A stretch of 64,000 nt of DNA from a virus. Of the stretch, positions 48,999-52,297 are shown in pieces (position 1 is the stretch's first letter; every line of letters starts with the position of its first letter). Location: positions 248,001 through 312,000 of the IMG/VR virus record IMGVR_UViG_3300032157_000001; one strand, given 5' to 3'. Below the pieces are notes generated by a model. It was given only the letters and a program-made list of their open reading frames with translations. It did not search any database and was not told the DNA's origin. Made by a program: the position numbers and the translations under genes.

Positions 48999-50564
48999 CT
49001 ATAGCTGAGAATTAATTCTCGCTCTTATTTCTTCAATTGTTTGAAGCTCACCAACAATCTTACCGTTGAGGAAGACCGTTTTAAGTTCACCTTGTTGTTC
49101 TTCTTCCCATGTGCATCGATCCTTGAGTTGGAGTTTTCCGTTGACATCACGATAAACTTGGATGAGTCCCTTTGCTGATTTTTTTGTTCCGTCATCCGTG
49201 ATTGGGTCTTTGAAGATTTCAATCCCGTGGATTTTTCCATCGATGTTTACTTCAGCATAGGTAGACTTTTGAGCCATTCCAAACGTATCTCTTGTCACAT
49301 ATGTGTAAGTATAAGAACCAATACCAGCAACCCAATTGGTTGAAGCAAATCCTTTCTTCATCAGCCGATCACAGATTTGAATTGCTCTTTCTGTAGTTAT
49401 TGCATCACCATAGATCGCGCCGACATGGGTGTCTAATTGTTTGTAACCCATTTCATTTACAGTACCGCCGAATGTGCTCCAAAGCATTTCAACAACACCT
49501 TGTCTTCTAGCATATTCTTCAGGGGAAGCAAGTTCTTGACTATAGAGCAATCCGGGTTTGTCTCCACAAAGAATTTCAACAGGATCACCAGAGTCTGGTC
49601 TTATTACCAACTTACCCTCTCTTGCCATGATTTCATTTTTGAGTTTTGGCATGTACTCATAAAGTACTTTCCAAAGATTCCACGTATCTGATACAATCGA
49701 CACGATACCAACAGGATAAACTTCGGTGATCAATCTTTTGAAAACAGAATACTCCGCTTCACCATATCTTTCCCAAGTAAGCCCATCTTTTGTGATGTAG
49801 AATCCTGTGGTAACACACATTACTGCGTGTTCAGTAGCAAAGACAGAACATCCAATGATACCTTTCTTTGCATCAGCATTGTAATACTTCTTAAGCCATT
49901 TGATGGCGGGGATGGTGTCTGTTCCAAAGAAAGATGTTAAGTGTCCGCCACCACTTAATTGTGCTGCAGCACGGCCAAACATTCCTCTGTATGAAAAATC
50001 ATGTCCTTGAAAAGGAATGAAACCCAAATCACCACCAGTTAACTTTGCGTAGTTTGTGAATATTTTTTTGAACTGAAGTGCAGAGGTTGCTGACGTTACT
50101 GGCCCCCAACTTTCGGAACTCATATCGGTTTCGATATAATTCGTTAGCCAGTAGAAATCGTCATGGGTATTCTTTACTGTGTAGAAGGGTACACGAATTG
50201 GACAAAGTGTTCCTTCCGGAAGAGCCTTGATTTCCAAAGGAAGATACCCCAATTTGTGCAGTGCTTTCCAATGATCAACACCAATGTCTTGTGCGAATTT
50301 CAATGAAAGAGTATACTCCGTCATCTCTTGAAGGAATTCTTCGGAGATTTCGTTAATGTCTTTTTTGAAGAATTGTTCATTCCAAATTTCAATCAGTGTA
50401 CTGATCATGTATGCTTGTAATCCGAATACAACAACTTCGTTGACTCCCGGCATACGACTCTTTCTTGGTGTCATGTTAGCTACGACTCTTGTCGTCTCTT
50501 TAACATATTGTCTTCTGTGGTCAATCTTATAACCATCAGTTAAAAGGGTAGGTCTAATATCCAT
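48999..50564 (-). CDS. nadV: Nicotinamide phosphoribosyltransferase (NadV/Nampt family)
   Basis: 521 aa from MDIRPTLLTDGYKIDHRRQY (start 50564, leader lacks SD), a normal Nampt length. Family motifs: QGHDFSYRGMFGRAA, SFFGTDTIPAIKWL, FATEHAVMC, IVSDTWNLW, KLVIRPDSGDPVEI, YGDAITTERA and FGMAQKSTYAEV. Nampt joins nicotinamide to PRPP to form NMN for NAD synthesis. It lies two genes from a Prs homologue, the arrangement known for phage NAD salvage and for the NARP1 pathway, in which the homologous enzymes use ADP-ribose-pyrophosphate. Which of the two is encoded cannot be told by eye. Confidence 0.92.
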   Translation of the reverse strand: MDIRPTLLTDGYKIDHRRQYVKETTRVVANMTPRKSRMPGVNEVVVFGLQAYMISTLIEIWNEQFFKKDINEISEEFLQEMTEYTLSLKFAQDIGVDHWKALHKLGYLPLEIKALPEGTLCPIRVPFYTVKNTHDDFYWLTNYIETDMSSESWGPVTSATSALQFKKIFTNYAKLTGGDLGFIPFQGHDFSYRGMFGRAAAQLSGGGHLTSFFGTDTIPAIKWLKKYYNADAKKGIIGCSVFATEHAVMCVTTGFYITKDGLTWERYGEAEYSVFKRLITEVYPVGIVSIVSDTWNLWKVLYEYMPKLKNEIMAREGKLVIRPDSGDPVEILCGDKPGLLYSQELASPEEYARRQGVVEMLWSTFGGTVNEMGYKQLDTHVGAIYGDAITTERAIQICDRLMKKGFASTNWVAGIGSYTYTYVTRDTFGMAQKSTYAEVNIDGKIHGIEIFKDPITDDGTKKSAKGLIQVYRDVNGKLQLKDRCTWEEEQQGELKTVFLNGKIVGELQTIEEIRARINSQL

Positions 50565-50589
50565 ATTTAAAAATTTAATTTGACTATTA

Positions 50590-51003
50590 TTATTGTTCTT
50601 TGAGTTTTTTAATTTTCTGAATAACCATAAGCAGAATCGTAACCGCTTGGAAAAGTCCTGCCCTGTCATCAAGAAGTATGTTATAATAAATCTTGCCGTT
50701 ATTCCCGTAGGGTAATTCAATAACATTCTTGTTGATGCCATCTACTTCTACACCCAAATTCTTGCAGTATTCCATCATAAATGGATAGCGTTCTGGTTTT
50801 GATGCACTGAAGAGCACAACATAGAACCCCAAACTTTTACACTCTTTTAATAAATCAACAACATCATCGTGAGTTTGTCCTCTGTTGTGAAAATCAAAAA
50901 TTGTGTCATCAAAATCACAAGCGATAATCAGTTTTGGATGCTGTACCCACTCTTTGTAAAGTCGCTCTACACAGTGCTTGGTATCGTAGAAGGTATCAAT
51001 CAT
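50590..51003 (-). CDS. HAD-family phosphatase, 137 aa
   Basis: HAD motif I KLIIACDFDDTIFDF, motif II-like VVLFSASKPERY, and motif IV NILLDDRAGL. Small cap-less HAD enzymes like this dephosphorylate nucleotides or sugar phosphates. It sits between nadV and prs, 25 nt from nadV, so it may act on an intermediate or by-product of that pathway. Overlaps 51000 by ATGA. Confidence 0.82.
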   Translation of the reverse strand: MIDTFYDTKHCVERLYKEWVQHPKLIIACDFDDTIFDFHNRGQTHDDVVDLLKECKSLGFYVVLFSASKPERYPFMMEYCKNLGVEVDGINKNVIELPYGNNGKIYYNILLDDRAGLFQAVTILLMVIQKIKKLKEQ

Positions 51004-51206
51004 TTTTTGAAGTATGGTTTTTTTATTTCATTAGATTCAATATCCTTAAGTGCCTTTCTATAACCGGCCATAAAACCAGCTTGCGCATGTAGAGATGCAA
51101 CGATTGCTTCGTATTTTGTTTTCCCAATCGAAATGTCGTCAAAATCCTTTTCTCTATATGCTCTACTTATCGCCAGTAGGCGTTCTTCTATTTCATCACT
51201 CAGCAT
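51000..51206 (-). CDS. Hypothetical helical protein, 68 aa
   Basis: Helical (MLSDEIEERLLAISRAYREK) with HAQAGFMAGYRKALKDIE. Overlaps prs (stop/start share one base) and the HAD gene (ATGA). Translationally coupled with the NAD genes; role unknown. Confidence 0.75.
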   Translation of the reverse strand: MLSDEIEERLLAISRAYREKDFDDISIGKTKYEAIVASLHAQAGFMAGYRKALKDIESNEIKKPYFKK

Positions 51207-52069
51207 TATTCGAATATATTATATACTGACACAAAAGATTCGTCCAGCATTGCGTGATCCTTTGGAATGTATTCATCCTTTCTGCTGTTTGTTGTGAACA
51301 ATCTTTCAAAATATTGAGATAGTTCGGTGAATCCATTGCTGAATATTCCGTGAGAAACTGCAAGGTAAAGTTTACCCACATTTCGCTCTTTCAATTTTTT
51401 TGCAAGTTCAACAAATGTTCTTCCGCCAATACATATGTCGTCAACGATAAGAACATCTTTACCTTCAAAATCTTGTTTTGAAAGTTCAATTGAGTCGATG
51501 TTGCCGCTTGAGATGGAGCGTGATTTATTTGCAGATGCTACCTCACCTTTGAATTTTATCTTGTCGGCGAGTTTATAAATCTTTTTGTATGCACCAGCAT
51601 CTGGTGATAAGAGCACAACGTTTTCGGGGAGAGATAACATAACACTACTGATATAGCTGCTGTTGTCAACGACTCTGCAGTTCTTGAGTAGTCCCGGACT
51701 CACTTCTGAGTGTGGATCATAAAGTGTATATCTATCAACGGGAAGTGCATTAAAAATATTGGTGATCGTTTTCAAACTGAAACATTCCCCCGTACTGAAG
51801 TCACGGTCAGCTTGCATGTAGGGCATGTATGGAATGAAAACATTTATTTTACGATCAGGCCAGTCCTTCTTTAATGTATCGACTGTCAACACTAACAACA
51901 TAATGTCGTCAGAACTGTTTAATCTTGTGATGATATAAAAATCATCATACTCATAATCTTTGGAACTGAAATCAATTTTGAATTTGATGTGGATTTCTCC
52001 ACCGGGAAATTTAAATGCTTTGTACTGGTCGTTATCGGTAATGCCGTTAGTAAGTTTGATCGTGAGCAT
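51206..52069 (-). CDS. prs: Ribose-phosphate pyrophosphokinase (Prs family)
   Basis: 287 aa, slightly shorter than bacterial Prs. Seen: FKFPGGEIHIKF at the N-terminus, YMPYMQADRDFSTGE (ATP-binding flexible-loop region), LYDPHSEVSPG (the D-P-H-S motif) and the PRPP-binding loop VLIVDDICIGGRTF. Prs makes PRPP from ribose 5-phosphate and ATP; the phage NARP1 homologue (Adps) pyrophosphorylates ADP-ribose instead. Operon with nadV. Confidence 0.9.
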   Translation of the reverse strand: MLTIKLTNGITDNDQYKAFKFPGGEIHIKFKIDFSSKDYEYDDFYIITRLNSSDDIMLLVLTVDTLKKDWPDRKINVFIPYMPYMQADRDFSTGECFSLKTITNIFNALPVDRYTLYDPHSEVSPGLLKNCRVVDNSSYISSVMLSLPENVVLLSPDAGAYKKIYKLADKIKFKGEVASANKSRSISSGNIDSIELSKQDFEGKDVLIVDDICIGGRTFVELAKKLKERNVGKLYLAVSHGIFSNGFTELSQYFERLFTTNSRKDEYIPKDHAMLDESFVSVYNIFE

Positions 52070-52075
52070 AAGAAT

Positions 52076-52297
52076 TTATATGATTTGTTTTTCGTGTCGC
52101 ACTAAAAAGATGTGTCGAATTTGGACATCTGGATTGTTAGTAAACTGGTCAATGATTTTTCTCACAGAAAAAGAACCAGCATCATTGAGGTGTATTATAA
52201 CATCACCAAACTTGCTTGTTGGTAGTTCATAAATAAAATCAACTTTGTGTTCTATGTTTGTCTCACCTTCGTTGAATTTAAATATGGTGTGTTTCAT
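52076..52297 (-). CDS. Prs-like N-terminal domain fragment, 73 aa
   Basis: TIFKFNEGETNIEHKVDFIY aligns with AFKFPGGEIHIKFKIDF of the neighbouring Prs, and the following strand/helix order also agrees, but the catalytic D-P-H-S and PRPP loops are absent. Either a decayed tandem duplicate or a regulatory partner of Prs. It lies 6 nt before prs. Confidence 0.6.
   Translation of the reverse strand: MKHTIFKFNEGETNIEHKVDFIYELPTSKFGDVIIHLNDAGSFSVRKIIDQFTNNPDVQIRHIFLVRHEKQII

What the first reader, a model, noticed from the sequence alone, without database searches (positions are those of the whole stretch)
48999..52297. NAD+ reconstitution cassette (NARP1-like) with HAD phosphatase
nadV (Nampt family) and prs (Prs family) are in one operon, separated by a HAD phosphatase and a small helical gene with ATGA couplings. 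Known phage pathways use this pair either to make NMN from nicotinamide (Nampt/Prs) or, as in NARP1, to rebuild NAD+ directly from ADP-ribose and nicotinamide after NAD-depleting immune systems fire. The interposed HAD gene and the Prs N-domain fragment are not part of the described minimal pathway and may be new components.
Basis: partly seen in the sequence, partly recalled or inferred. Interest (0 to 1): 0.75.

Follow-up and report, generated by a model that had tools for sequence, protein, structure and literature searches.

The report
NAD+-rebuilding phage operon with extra phosphatase
A giant phage carries the two enzymes that rebuild NAD+ after bacterial immune systems destroy it, plus a small phosphatase that turns out to travel with this pathway in many unrelated phages and bacteria and is probably an overlooked third component.

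Summary
The cassette is real. On the minus strand of a 371.5-kb phage genome lie p73, a Prs-family gene, a 68-aa gene, a capless HAD phosphatase and a Nampt-family gene, tightly packed. The Nampt-family protein is Namat-like: of 20 NAD+-contacting residues in the SPbetaL1 Namat crystal structure, 19 are identical and one is conservative (F392Y). The adenine-clamp motif (GSYTYTYVTRD) is intact and the genome has no NMNAT hit. The Prs-family protein keeps the catalytic residues but has the DDICxGGxTF loop of NARP1-linked Adps, not the DTGGT loop of true Prs. So this is NARP1, not NMN salvage (inferred; no assay). The HAD is the news. Its subfamily sits beside Adps/Namat in 61 of 80 viral and 37 of 51 bacterial loci, in five of six possible gene orders, usually overlapping a neighbour. 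It is missing from tested NARP1 phages such as ICP1, so it is an accessory. Most likely it strips phosphate from phosphorylated ADP-ribose to feed Adps; the substrate is unproven. The "Prs N-domain fragment" claim fails. A by-product is a predicted nicotinate branch of NARP1: four loci with PncA and NadE are exactly the four of 182 Namats that lost the nicotinamide-contact Asp.

The parts
52076..52297 (-). p73: 73-aa protein of unknown function, first gene of the cassette
   Evidence: Homolog of 65 aa in the same place in sister phage L013 (38% over 53 aa, E 1e-6); no Pfam match; not Prs-like by profile comparison
51206..52069 (-). Adps-like ADP-ribose pyrophosphate synthetase (Prs family, 287 aa)
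   Evidence: phrog_619 E 1e-72; catalytic K182, R184, D157, H120, D210/D211 invariant among Adps homologs; loop DDICIGGRTF as in Bas62 and LeBron (DDICDGG-TF; ICP1 NrsA DDICDGAASF), versus DDxxDTGGT in a housekeeping Prs
51000..51206 (-). 68-aa small predicted helical protein, unknown function
   Evidence: TAATG/ATGA coupling; no significant Pfam match (best E 0.15); not in sister phage cassette; no relatives found in a close-relative viral scan
50590..51003 (-). NARP1-associated HAD phosphatase (137 aa, no cap domain)
   Evidence: AlphaFold model pLDDT 95.8; nearest solved fold BT_0820 Z 11.5, then T4 Pnkp phosphatase domain Z 8.2; D30, D32, K104, D112 invariant in 61 homologs; NARP1 neighbours in 98 of 131 loci
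48999..50564 (-). Namat-like nicotinamide ADP-ribose transferase (Nampt family, 521 aa)
   Evidence: 51.5% identical to SPbetaL1 Namat; 20 NAD+-contact positions conserved, 19 identical; signature GSYTYTYVTRD; best PDB match 9w5x E 4e-142 versus human-type Nampt about 1e-54
52302..52332 (-). possible promoter TTTG-N19-TAAATTTG, 4 bp upstream of the p73 ATG
   Evidence: Pattern match; 5 such matches in the window against 1.87 expected, so weak

Best explanation
This is an expanded NARP1 cassette. The Prs-family enzyme (Adps) puts a diphosphate on C1'' of ADP-ribose using ATP, and the Nampt-family enzyme (Namat) swaps that diphosphate for nicotinamide, giving NAD+ in two steps from the products of host NADases. 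The HAD is a dedicated accessory phosphatase of this pathway. It most likely removes a phosphate from a phosphorylated ADP-ribose (ADPR-1''-phosphate or its 1'',2''-cyclic form from NAD+ phosphorolysis or ADPR-PP decay, or 2'-phospho-ADPR from NADP+) and so returns it to the ADPR pool that Adps uses. Shown: gene content, residues, fold and linkage. Inferred: enzymatic activities and the HAD substrate. My confidence is about 0.9 for NARP1, 0.85 for the HAD being a functional part of it, and 0.4 for the ADPR-phosphate substrate class.
For: Namat: the SPbetaL1 NAD+-contact residues mapped are conserved, including R40, F392 (as Y), Y396, T398, R399, D400 of the adenine clamp and D215 and R306 of the core, against the residue list in PMC12774641. 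Adps: catalytic residues kept, 5'-phosphate loop changed in the same way as in phages with genetically tested or Namat-linked homologs (ICP1 NrsAB in PMC11559045). No NMNAT family hit in the 371.5-kb record, so NMN would depend on the host. HAD linkage: 61 of 80 viral and 37 of 51 bacterial loci have Adps and/or Namat within 7 kb, 79 of 98 within 100 bp; after clustering at 60% identity 22 of 28 viral and 7 of 12 bacterial-only clusters; five of six gene orders; NARP1 linkage spreads over the whole HAD tree (83 of 102 rows). Only 3.8% of public phage records hold a Namat relative (1937 of 50,697). HAD active-site residues are invariant. ADPR-side role: NARP1 loci repeatedly also carry NADAR, macro and ADP-ribosylglycohydrolase genes, and the HAD occurs in both nicotinamide-type and nicotinate-type cassettes. 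Precedent: RyDEP inside a NARP1 operon feeds ADPR to Adps (PMC13232231).
Against: No assay of any of these proteins. The Adps loop is a class marker defined by co-occurrence, not a proven specificity determinant. The HAD is absent from the NARP1 regions of ICP1, Bas62 and LeBron and from 65 of 80 Namat-selected loci, so it is not needed. Two HAD loci sit with NadE/PnuC/NadR/PncA-type genes and no Namat or Adps-type partner nearby (L008, L084), and others next to RNA ligase, metallophosphoesterase or radical SAM genes, which suits broader substrates. RES-type NAD phosphorylases, one proposed source of ADPR-1''-phosphate, are not known phage defences (PMC11535050).
Confidence: 0.55

Rival explanations
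1. NARP1 is right, but the HAD is an inorganic pyrophosphatase (or clears AMP), pulling the Namat reaction forward by removing its by-product.
For: Namat releases PPi and Adps releases AMP (pathway chemistry); HAD-type pyrophosphatases exist (own knowledge); NadE, NadR and RNA ligases, found next to HAD-only loci, also release PPi.
Against: Bacterial cells already hold strong pyrophosphatases; conserved residues outside the HAD motifs (R14, E18, N91, Y106, N108) suggest a larger specific ligand; the second structural match is the Pnkp 3'-phosphatase domain.
Confidence: 0.17
2. The pair is an ordinary Nampt/Prs NMN salvage pathway, and the HAD a nucleotidase.
For: NCBIfam names them nicotinate phosphoribosyltransferase and ribose-phosphate diphosphokinase; Namat also makes NMN from PRPP in vitro (PMC12774641).
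Against: Adenine clamp complete, Prs 5'-phosphate loop lost, no NMNAT family hit in the record; closest PDB match is Namat, not Nampt.
Confidence: 0.06
3. The HAD is a 2',3'-phosphatase of RNA ends (Pnkp-like) that merely shares early operons with NARP1.
For: Fold match to T4 Pnkp and Pnkp1 (Z 8.2 and 7.8); RNA ligases and metallophosphoesterases recur near NARP1 and HAD-only loci.
Against: Linkage to Adps/Namat is far tighter, also in bacterial operons with NrtR-type regulators; Z near 8 is weak.
Confidence: 0.12
4. NARP1 is right but the HAD has another role, for example NMN/NaMN 5'-nucleotidase, NADP phosphatase acting on intact cofactor, or regulation.
For: HAD also in NAD clusters without Adps/Namat nearby (L008, L084).
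Against: An NMN nucleotidase would be futile beside NadR in L008; catalytic residues are intact, so pure regulation is unlikely.
Confidence: 0.1

Closest known systems
NARP1 (Adps + Namat; SPbetaL1, Bas63, ICP1 NrsAB, Paenibacillus foliorum)
   Same: Both enzymes present, adjacent, with Namat clamp and core residues conserved and the Adps-type loop
   Different: HAD between the two genes, plus p73 and a 68-aa gene; Namat has a 14-residue insertion after the catalytic His
RyDEP-containing NARP1 operon (mycobacteriophage DyoEdafos, PMC13232231)
   Same: A third gene inside the NARP1 operon that supplies ADPR
   Different: RyDEP is a glycosidase of cyclic ADPR; here the third gene is a HAD phosphatase of unproven substrate
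BT_0820 HAD-type phosphatase (PDB 2obb, NCBIfam NF046079)
   Same: Closest solved fold (Z 11.5) and best sequence profile match (E 5e-10)
   Different: 27% identity, 26.9 bits against a cut-off of 165; lacks the extra N-terminal helix with R14/E18
T4 polynucleotide kinase 3'-phosphatase domain
   Same: HAD core without a cap, Z 8.2
   Different: 18% identity, no kinase domain
Poa1-like macro protein near NARP1 in Pseudomonas phage Adele (PMC12846349)
   Same: Proposed to free ADPR from 1''-derivatives for NARP1
   Different: Macro fold, not HAD; speculative in that paper

Membership tests
NARP1: Namat | NAM and ribose-phosphate catalytic core (D13, Y15, F189, R192, D215, R306, D308, catalytic His) | tested here: met
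   All identical in the window protein
[quoted passage not shown]
   GSYTYTYVTRD
NARP1: Namat | Stacking residue (R, K or Y) in the beta1-beta2 selectivity-clamp loop | tested here: met
   R40 equivalent is R37
NARP1: Adps | Prs fold with catalytic residues | tested here: met
   Pfam Pribosyltran_N and Pribosyltran over cut-off; K182, R184, H120, D157, D210, D211 invariant in alignment A2
NARP1: Adps | Specificity for ADP-ribose over ribose 5-phosphate | not testable with these tools
   Loop DDICIGGRTF groups with NARP1-linked homologs, but no structure or assay defines the determinant
NARP1 | Adps and Namat encoded together | tested here: met
   Same strand, about 640 bp apart, with the HAD and 68-aa gene between
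NARP1 | NAD+ made from ADPR, ATP and NAM | not testable with these tools
   Needs enzymes
Canonical Nampt/Prs/NMNAT salvage (NARP2-like) | NMNAT encoded alongside | tested here: not met
   No PF01467 match in the 371.5-kb record; record may be incomplete
Canonical Prs | DTGGT ribose-5-phosphate loop | tested here: not met
   Window DDICIGGRTF; Prs comparators L224 and L230 keep DTGGT
BT0820 family HAD-type phosphatase (NF046079) | Curated score cut-off 165 bits | tested here: not met
   26.9 bits
HAD superfamily phosphatase | DxD nucleophile/acid pair, motif II Thr/Ser, motif III Lys, motif IV acidic pair | tested here: met
   D30, D32, K104, D112 invariant, T66 and D113 positions nearly invariant in 61 homologs
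Pnkp-type 3'-phosphatase | Fold above background and activity on 3'-phosphate ends | tested here: inconclusive
   Z 8.2, little above the 6.7 background; activity not testable

The most novel reading that the evidence does not exclude
The HAD is an ADP-ribose-1''-phosphate (or ADPR 1'',2''-cyclic phosphate) phosphatase that widens NARP1 from repairing NADase damage to repairing NAD+ phosphorolysis and to recycling decayed ADPR-PP. It would be a dedicated third NARP1 enzyme in phages and in bacteria, and it also serves a nicotinate branch of NARP1 (PncA + Adps + D215A-type Namat + NadE).
Probability: 0.28. Interest if true: 0.82.

Novelty: new variant of a known kind. Interest (0 to 1): 0.64.

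Why it matters
NARP1 is described as a two-enzyme pathway. A third, repeatedly linked phosphatase points to an ADP-ribose derivative that matters in infection and that Adps alone cannot use, which can be tested directly. It suggests that some hosts attack NAD+ by routes leaving phosphorylated ADPR, or that ADPR-PP decay is a real problem. The same HAD-NARP1 operon in Flavobacteriia, Cohnella and Saprospiraceae, often with an NrtR-type regulator gene nearby, implies a housekeeping ADPR-salvage route in bacteria. The predicted nicotinate branch would be a further route to NAD+.

Tried and rejected
Prs N-domain fragment (p73): rejected by hhalign (0.1% probability) and by the sister homolog. Close relatives of p73 and of the 68-aa gene in viral contigs: none found. 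Nearby phage DNA by megablast: no match. Macro domain in the own genome: none. Exclusivity of HAD and macro genes: looked at informally in the loci, both occur together, so no support for redundancy. VIA-align did not single out one enzyme beyond BT_0820; rows at Z about 6.7, including the arabinose-1,5-diphosphate phosphatase AfhF, are at background. Promoter count for the Bacteroidota-type pattern is not significant. The original NARP1 paper (doi 10.1038/s41586-024-07986-w) is not held, so whether it mentions a HAD could not be checked.
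Full report
The window is bases 248,001-312,000 of a 371,504-base virus record in IMG/VR. The cassette lies on the minus strand: p73 (52297-52076), a Prs-family gene (52069-51206), a 68-aa gene (51206-51000), a HAD (51003-50590) and a Nampt-family gene (50564-48999), with gaps of 6, -1, -4 and 25 bp. The 580-aa reading frame starting at 50741 overlaps the HAD; homologs start at the internal ATG at 50564. A 97-aa, an 89-aa, a DUF6794 and a QueC-like gene follow in close packing.

Namat or Nampt? The structural study of SPbetaL1 Namat lists its NAD+ contacts and a signature absent from Nampt, GSx-phi-x-phi-x-phi-TRD (PMC12774641). 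I mapped twenty positions: nineteen are identical in the window protein and F392 is Tyr, which the motif allows; the catalytic His is kept. Identity to SPbetaL1 Namat is 51.5%. The best PDB match is Namat 9w5x at E 4e-142, against about 1e-54 for human-type Nampt. The human-type sequence has a non-aromatic segment at the clamp (GGGLLQKLTRD in the alignment). Among 181 Namat-family proteins from fetched loci, 124 fit a strict form of the signature.

Adps or Prs? The catalytic residues of PRPP synthetases (by my knowledge of the family: His, ribose Asp, flexible-loop Lys and Arg, and the DD pair) are invariant in the alignment. The loop that in true Prs grips the 5'-phosphate (DDxxDTGGT, as in L224 and in the 735-kb phage L230) is DDICIGGRTF here, like DDICDGGRTF in Bas62, DDICDGGWTF in LeBron and DDICDGAASF in ICP1. 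ICP1 NrsAB raise NAD+ in infected cells that carry a NAD-depleting defence (PMC11559045). I take the loop as a class marker; no published structure of Adps was at hand to prove that it sets specificity. The record has no NMNAT (PF01467) match, as expected if NAD+ is made directly. It does hold two NADAR and two Nudix proteins.

The HAD. A scan of 2.9 million viral contigs with a nine-sequence profile kept the 80 best loci; 61 have Adps and/or Namat within 7 kb. The same scan of 84,980 bacterial and archaeal genomes gave 51 loci, of which 37 do. Clustered at 60% identity, 22 of 28 viral and 7 of 12 bacterial-only clusters are linked. Five of six gene orders occur, 79 of 98 linked HADs lie within 100 bp of a partner and the median distance is -18.5 bp, i.e. 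overlapping reading frames (stop-to-stop frames were measured, so true gaps are a little larger). On a tree of 102 HADs the linkage is spread over the whole tree and needs about ten changes. Seen from the other side, 15 of the 80 best Namat loci, which were not selected for HAD, carry it, and only 29 of 50,697 public phage records have a match at 1e-5, against 1937 with a Namat relative. The link therefore is specific in one direction: most of these HADs live with NARP1, while most NARP1 pairs lack the HAD. In named phages it sits between Namat and Adps in crAss-like phages and DAC15, between Adps and Namat in Vibrio phage VPT02, and after Namat in Phass-1. The public label 'phosphoheptose isomerase' is misleading.

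Structure and catalysis. The model is confident (mean pLDDT 95.8). The nearest solved structure is BT_0820, a HAD of unknown role (Z 11.5, 27% identity); the phosphatase domains of T4 Pnkp and bacterial Pnkp1 follow at 8.2 and 7.8, and a broad background at 6.7 includes the phage arabinose-1,5-diphosphate phosphatase. In 61 homologs the nucleophile and acid (D30, D32), the motif III Lys and the motif IV Asp are invariant, as are R14, N91 and R114, with E18, Y106 and N108 nearly so. It is therefore an active-looking phosphatase with its own extra conserved residues, outside the NCBIfam BT0820 family by score (26.9 of 165 bits).

What would it do? NARP1 loci are rich in ADP-ribose enzymes: NADAR, macro-like and ADP-ribosylglycohydrolase genes, NrtR regulators in bacteria, and a nucleoside 2-deoxyribosyltransferase-like gene in 45 of the loci examined. 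RyDEP, a glycosidase inside a mycobacteriophage NARP1 operon, supplies ADPR to Adps (PMC13232231), and a macro protein near NARP1 was proposed to do the same (PMC12846349). The HAD fits that pattern. ADPR-1''-phosphate arises by RES-type NAD+ phosphorolysis (PMC11535050, PMC9503650), though RES toxins are not shown to be phage defences. ADPR-PP should also decay like PRPP (inference), and NADP+ cleavage gives 2'-phospho-ADPR. Pyrophosphatase activity is the main rival. The HAD-only loci near NadE, PnuC, NadR and PncA (L008, L084), RNA ligase (L075), metallophosphoesterase (L047, L051) or radical SAM genes (L055, L059) leave the substrate open.

A nicotinate branch. In 182 aligned Namats the Asp that contacts the nicotinamide amide (D215) is Asp or Glu in 178 and Ala in four. 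Those four, in Phass-1, one viral contig, Clostridium tagluense and a Lachnospiraceae MAG, are exactly the Namat loci that also hold PncA- and NadE-type genes; all four hold Adps and the HAD (Pfam checks for Phass-1). I infer a route NAM to nicotinate, plus ADPR-PP to NaAD, to NAD+. The window keeps the Asp, so it belongs to the nicotinamide branch. That the HAD occurs in both branches argues that it works on the ADP-ribose side.

Other genes. p73 has a 65-aa homolog in the same place in the sister phage (L013), together with Thg1, Adps (64%), HAD (72%), DUF6794 and the QueC-like gene; Namat there is only 49% identical and a DUF1937/DUF4406 gene stands between HAD and Namat. The 68-aa gene is missing there. 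Neither small gene is explained.

Limits. No enzyme was assayed. The original NARP1 paper is not in the library, so a mention of the HAD there cannot be excluded; none of the NARP1 papers I could read names one. Some loci are near-duplicates, which is why clustered counts are given. The viral record may be incomplete.

Noticed in passing
L007, L090, L183, L211: Predicted nicotinate branch of NARP1: the four Namats of 182 with Ala at the D215 position are exactly those whose loci also hold PncA- and NadE-type genes.
   Followed up: partly
L041:8444-9253, L002:7447-7968 and 43 other loci: A nucleoside 2-deoxyribosyltransferase-like protein (PF15891) is the commonest other neighbour of NARP1/HAD genes (35 dereplicated members); possible further accessory.
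   Followed up: partly
L127:5050-5604, L188:9099-10925, L081:5927-6514: NADAR, ADP-ribosylglycohydrolase and macro-like genes recur within 3 kb of NARP1 genes.
   Followed up: partly
L174-L218 (Cohnella, Paenibacillus, Flavobacteriia, Saprospiraceae, Mucilaginibacter): Bacterial HAD-NARP1 operons, several with NrtR-type Nudix regulator genes nearby, look like housekeeping ADPR salvage.
   Followed up: partly
L008 (735-kb phage LR756501): Phage cluster of NadE, HAD, PnuC, NadR-like and isochorismatase-type (PncA-like) genes, with a true-Prs-type gene about 23 kb away.
   Followed up: partly
window 49731-49830 (-): Window Namat has a 14-residue insertion right after the catalytic His loop (CVTTGFYITKDGLTWERYGEAEYSVFKR); the same insertion is in L046 and a different one in Phass-1.
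   Followed up: no
window 52347-53267 (+): Thg1-like tRNA-His guanylyltransferase next to the cassette, divergent; a Thg1 gene also lies near NARP1 in sister phage L013 and five other loci.
   Followed up: no
window 52302-52332, 43105-43136 (-); L013:10102-10132: TTTG-N19/20-TAAATTTG elements; those at window 52302 and in L013 end 4 bases before a gene start; suggests Bacteroidota-type promoters and near-leaderless messages, but the count is not significant.
   Followed up: partly
L013 versus window: Namat is only 49% identical between sister phages whose Adps and HAD are 64% and 72% identical, hinting at separate replacement of Namat.
   Followed up: no
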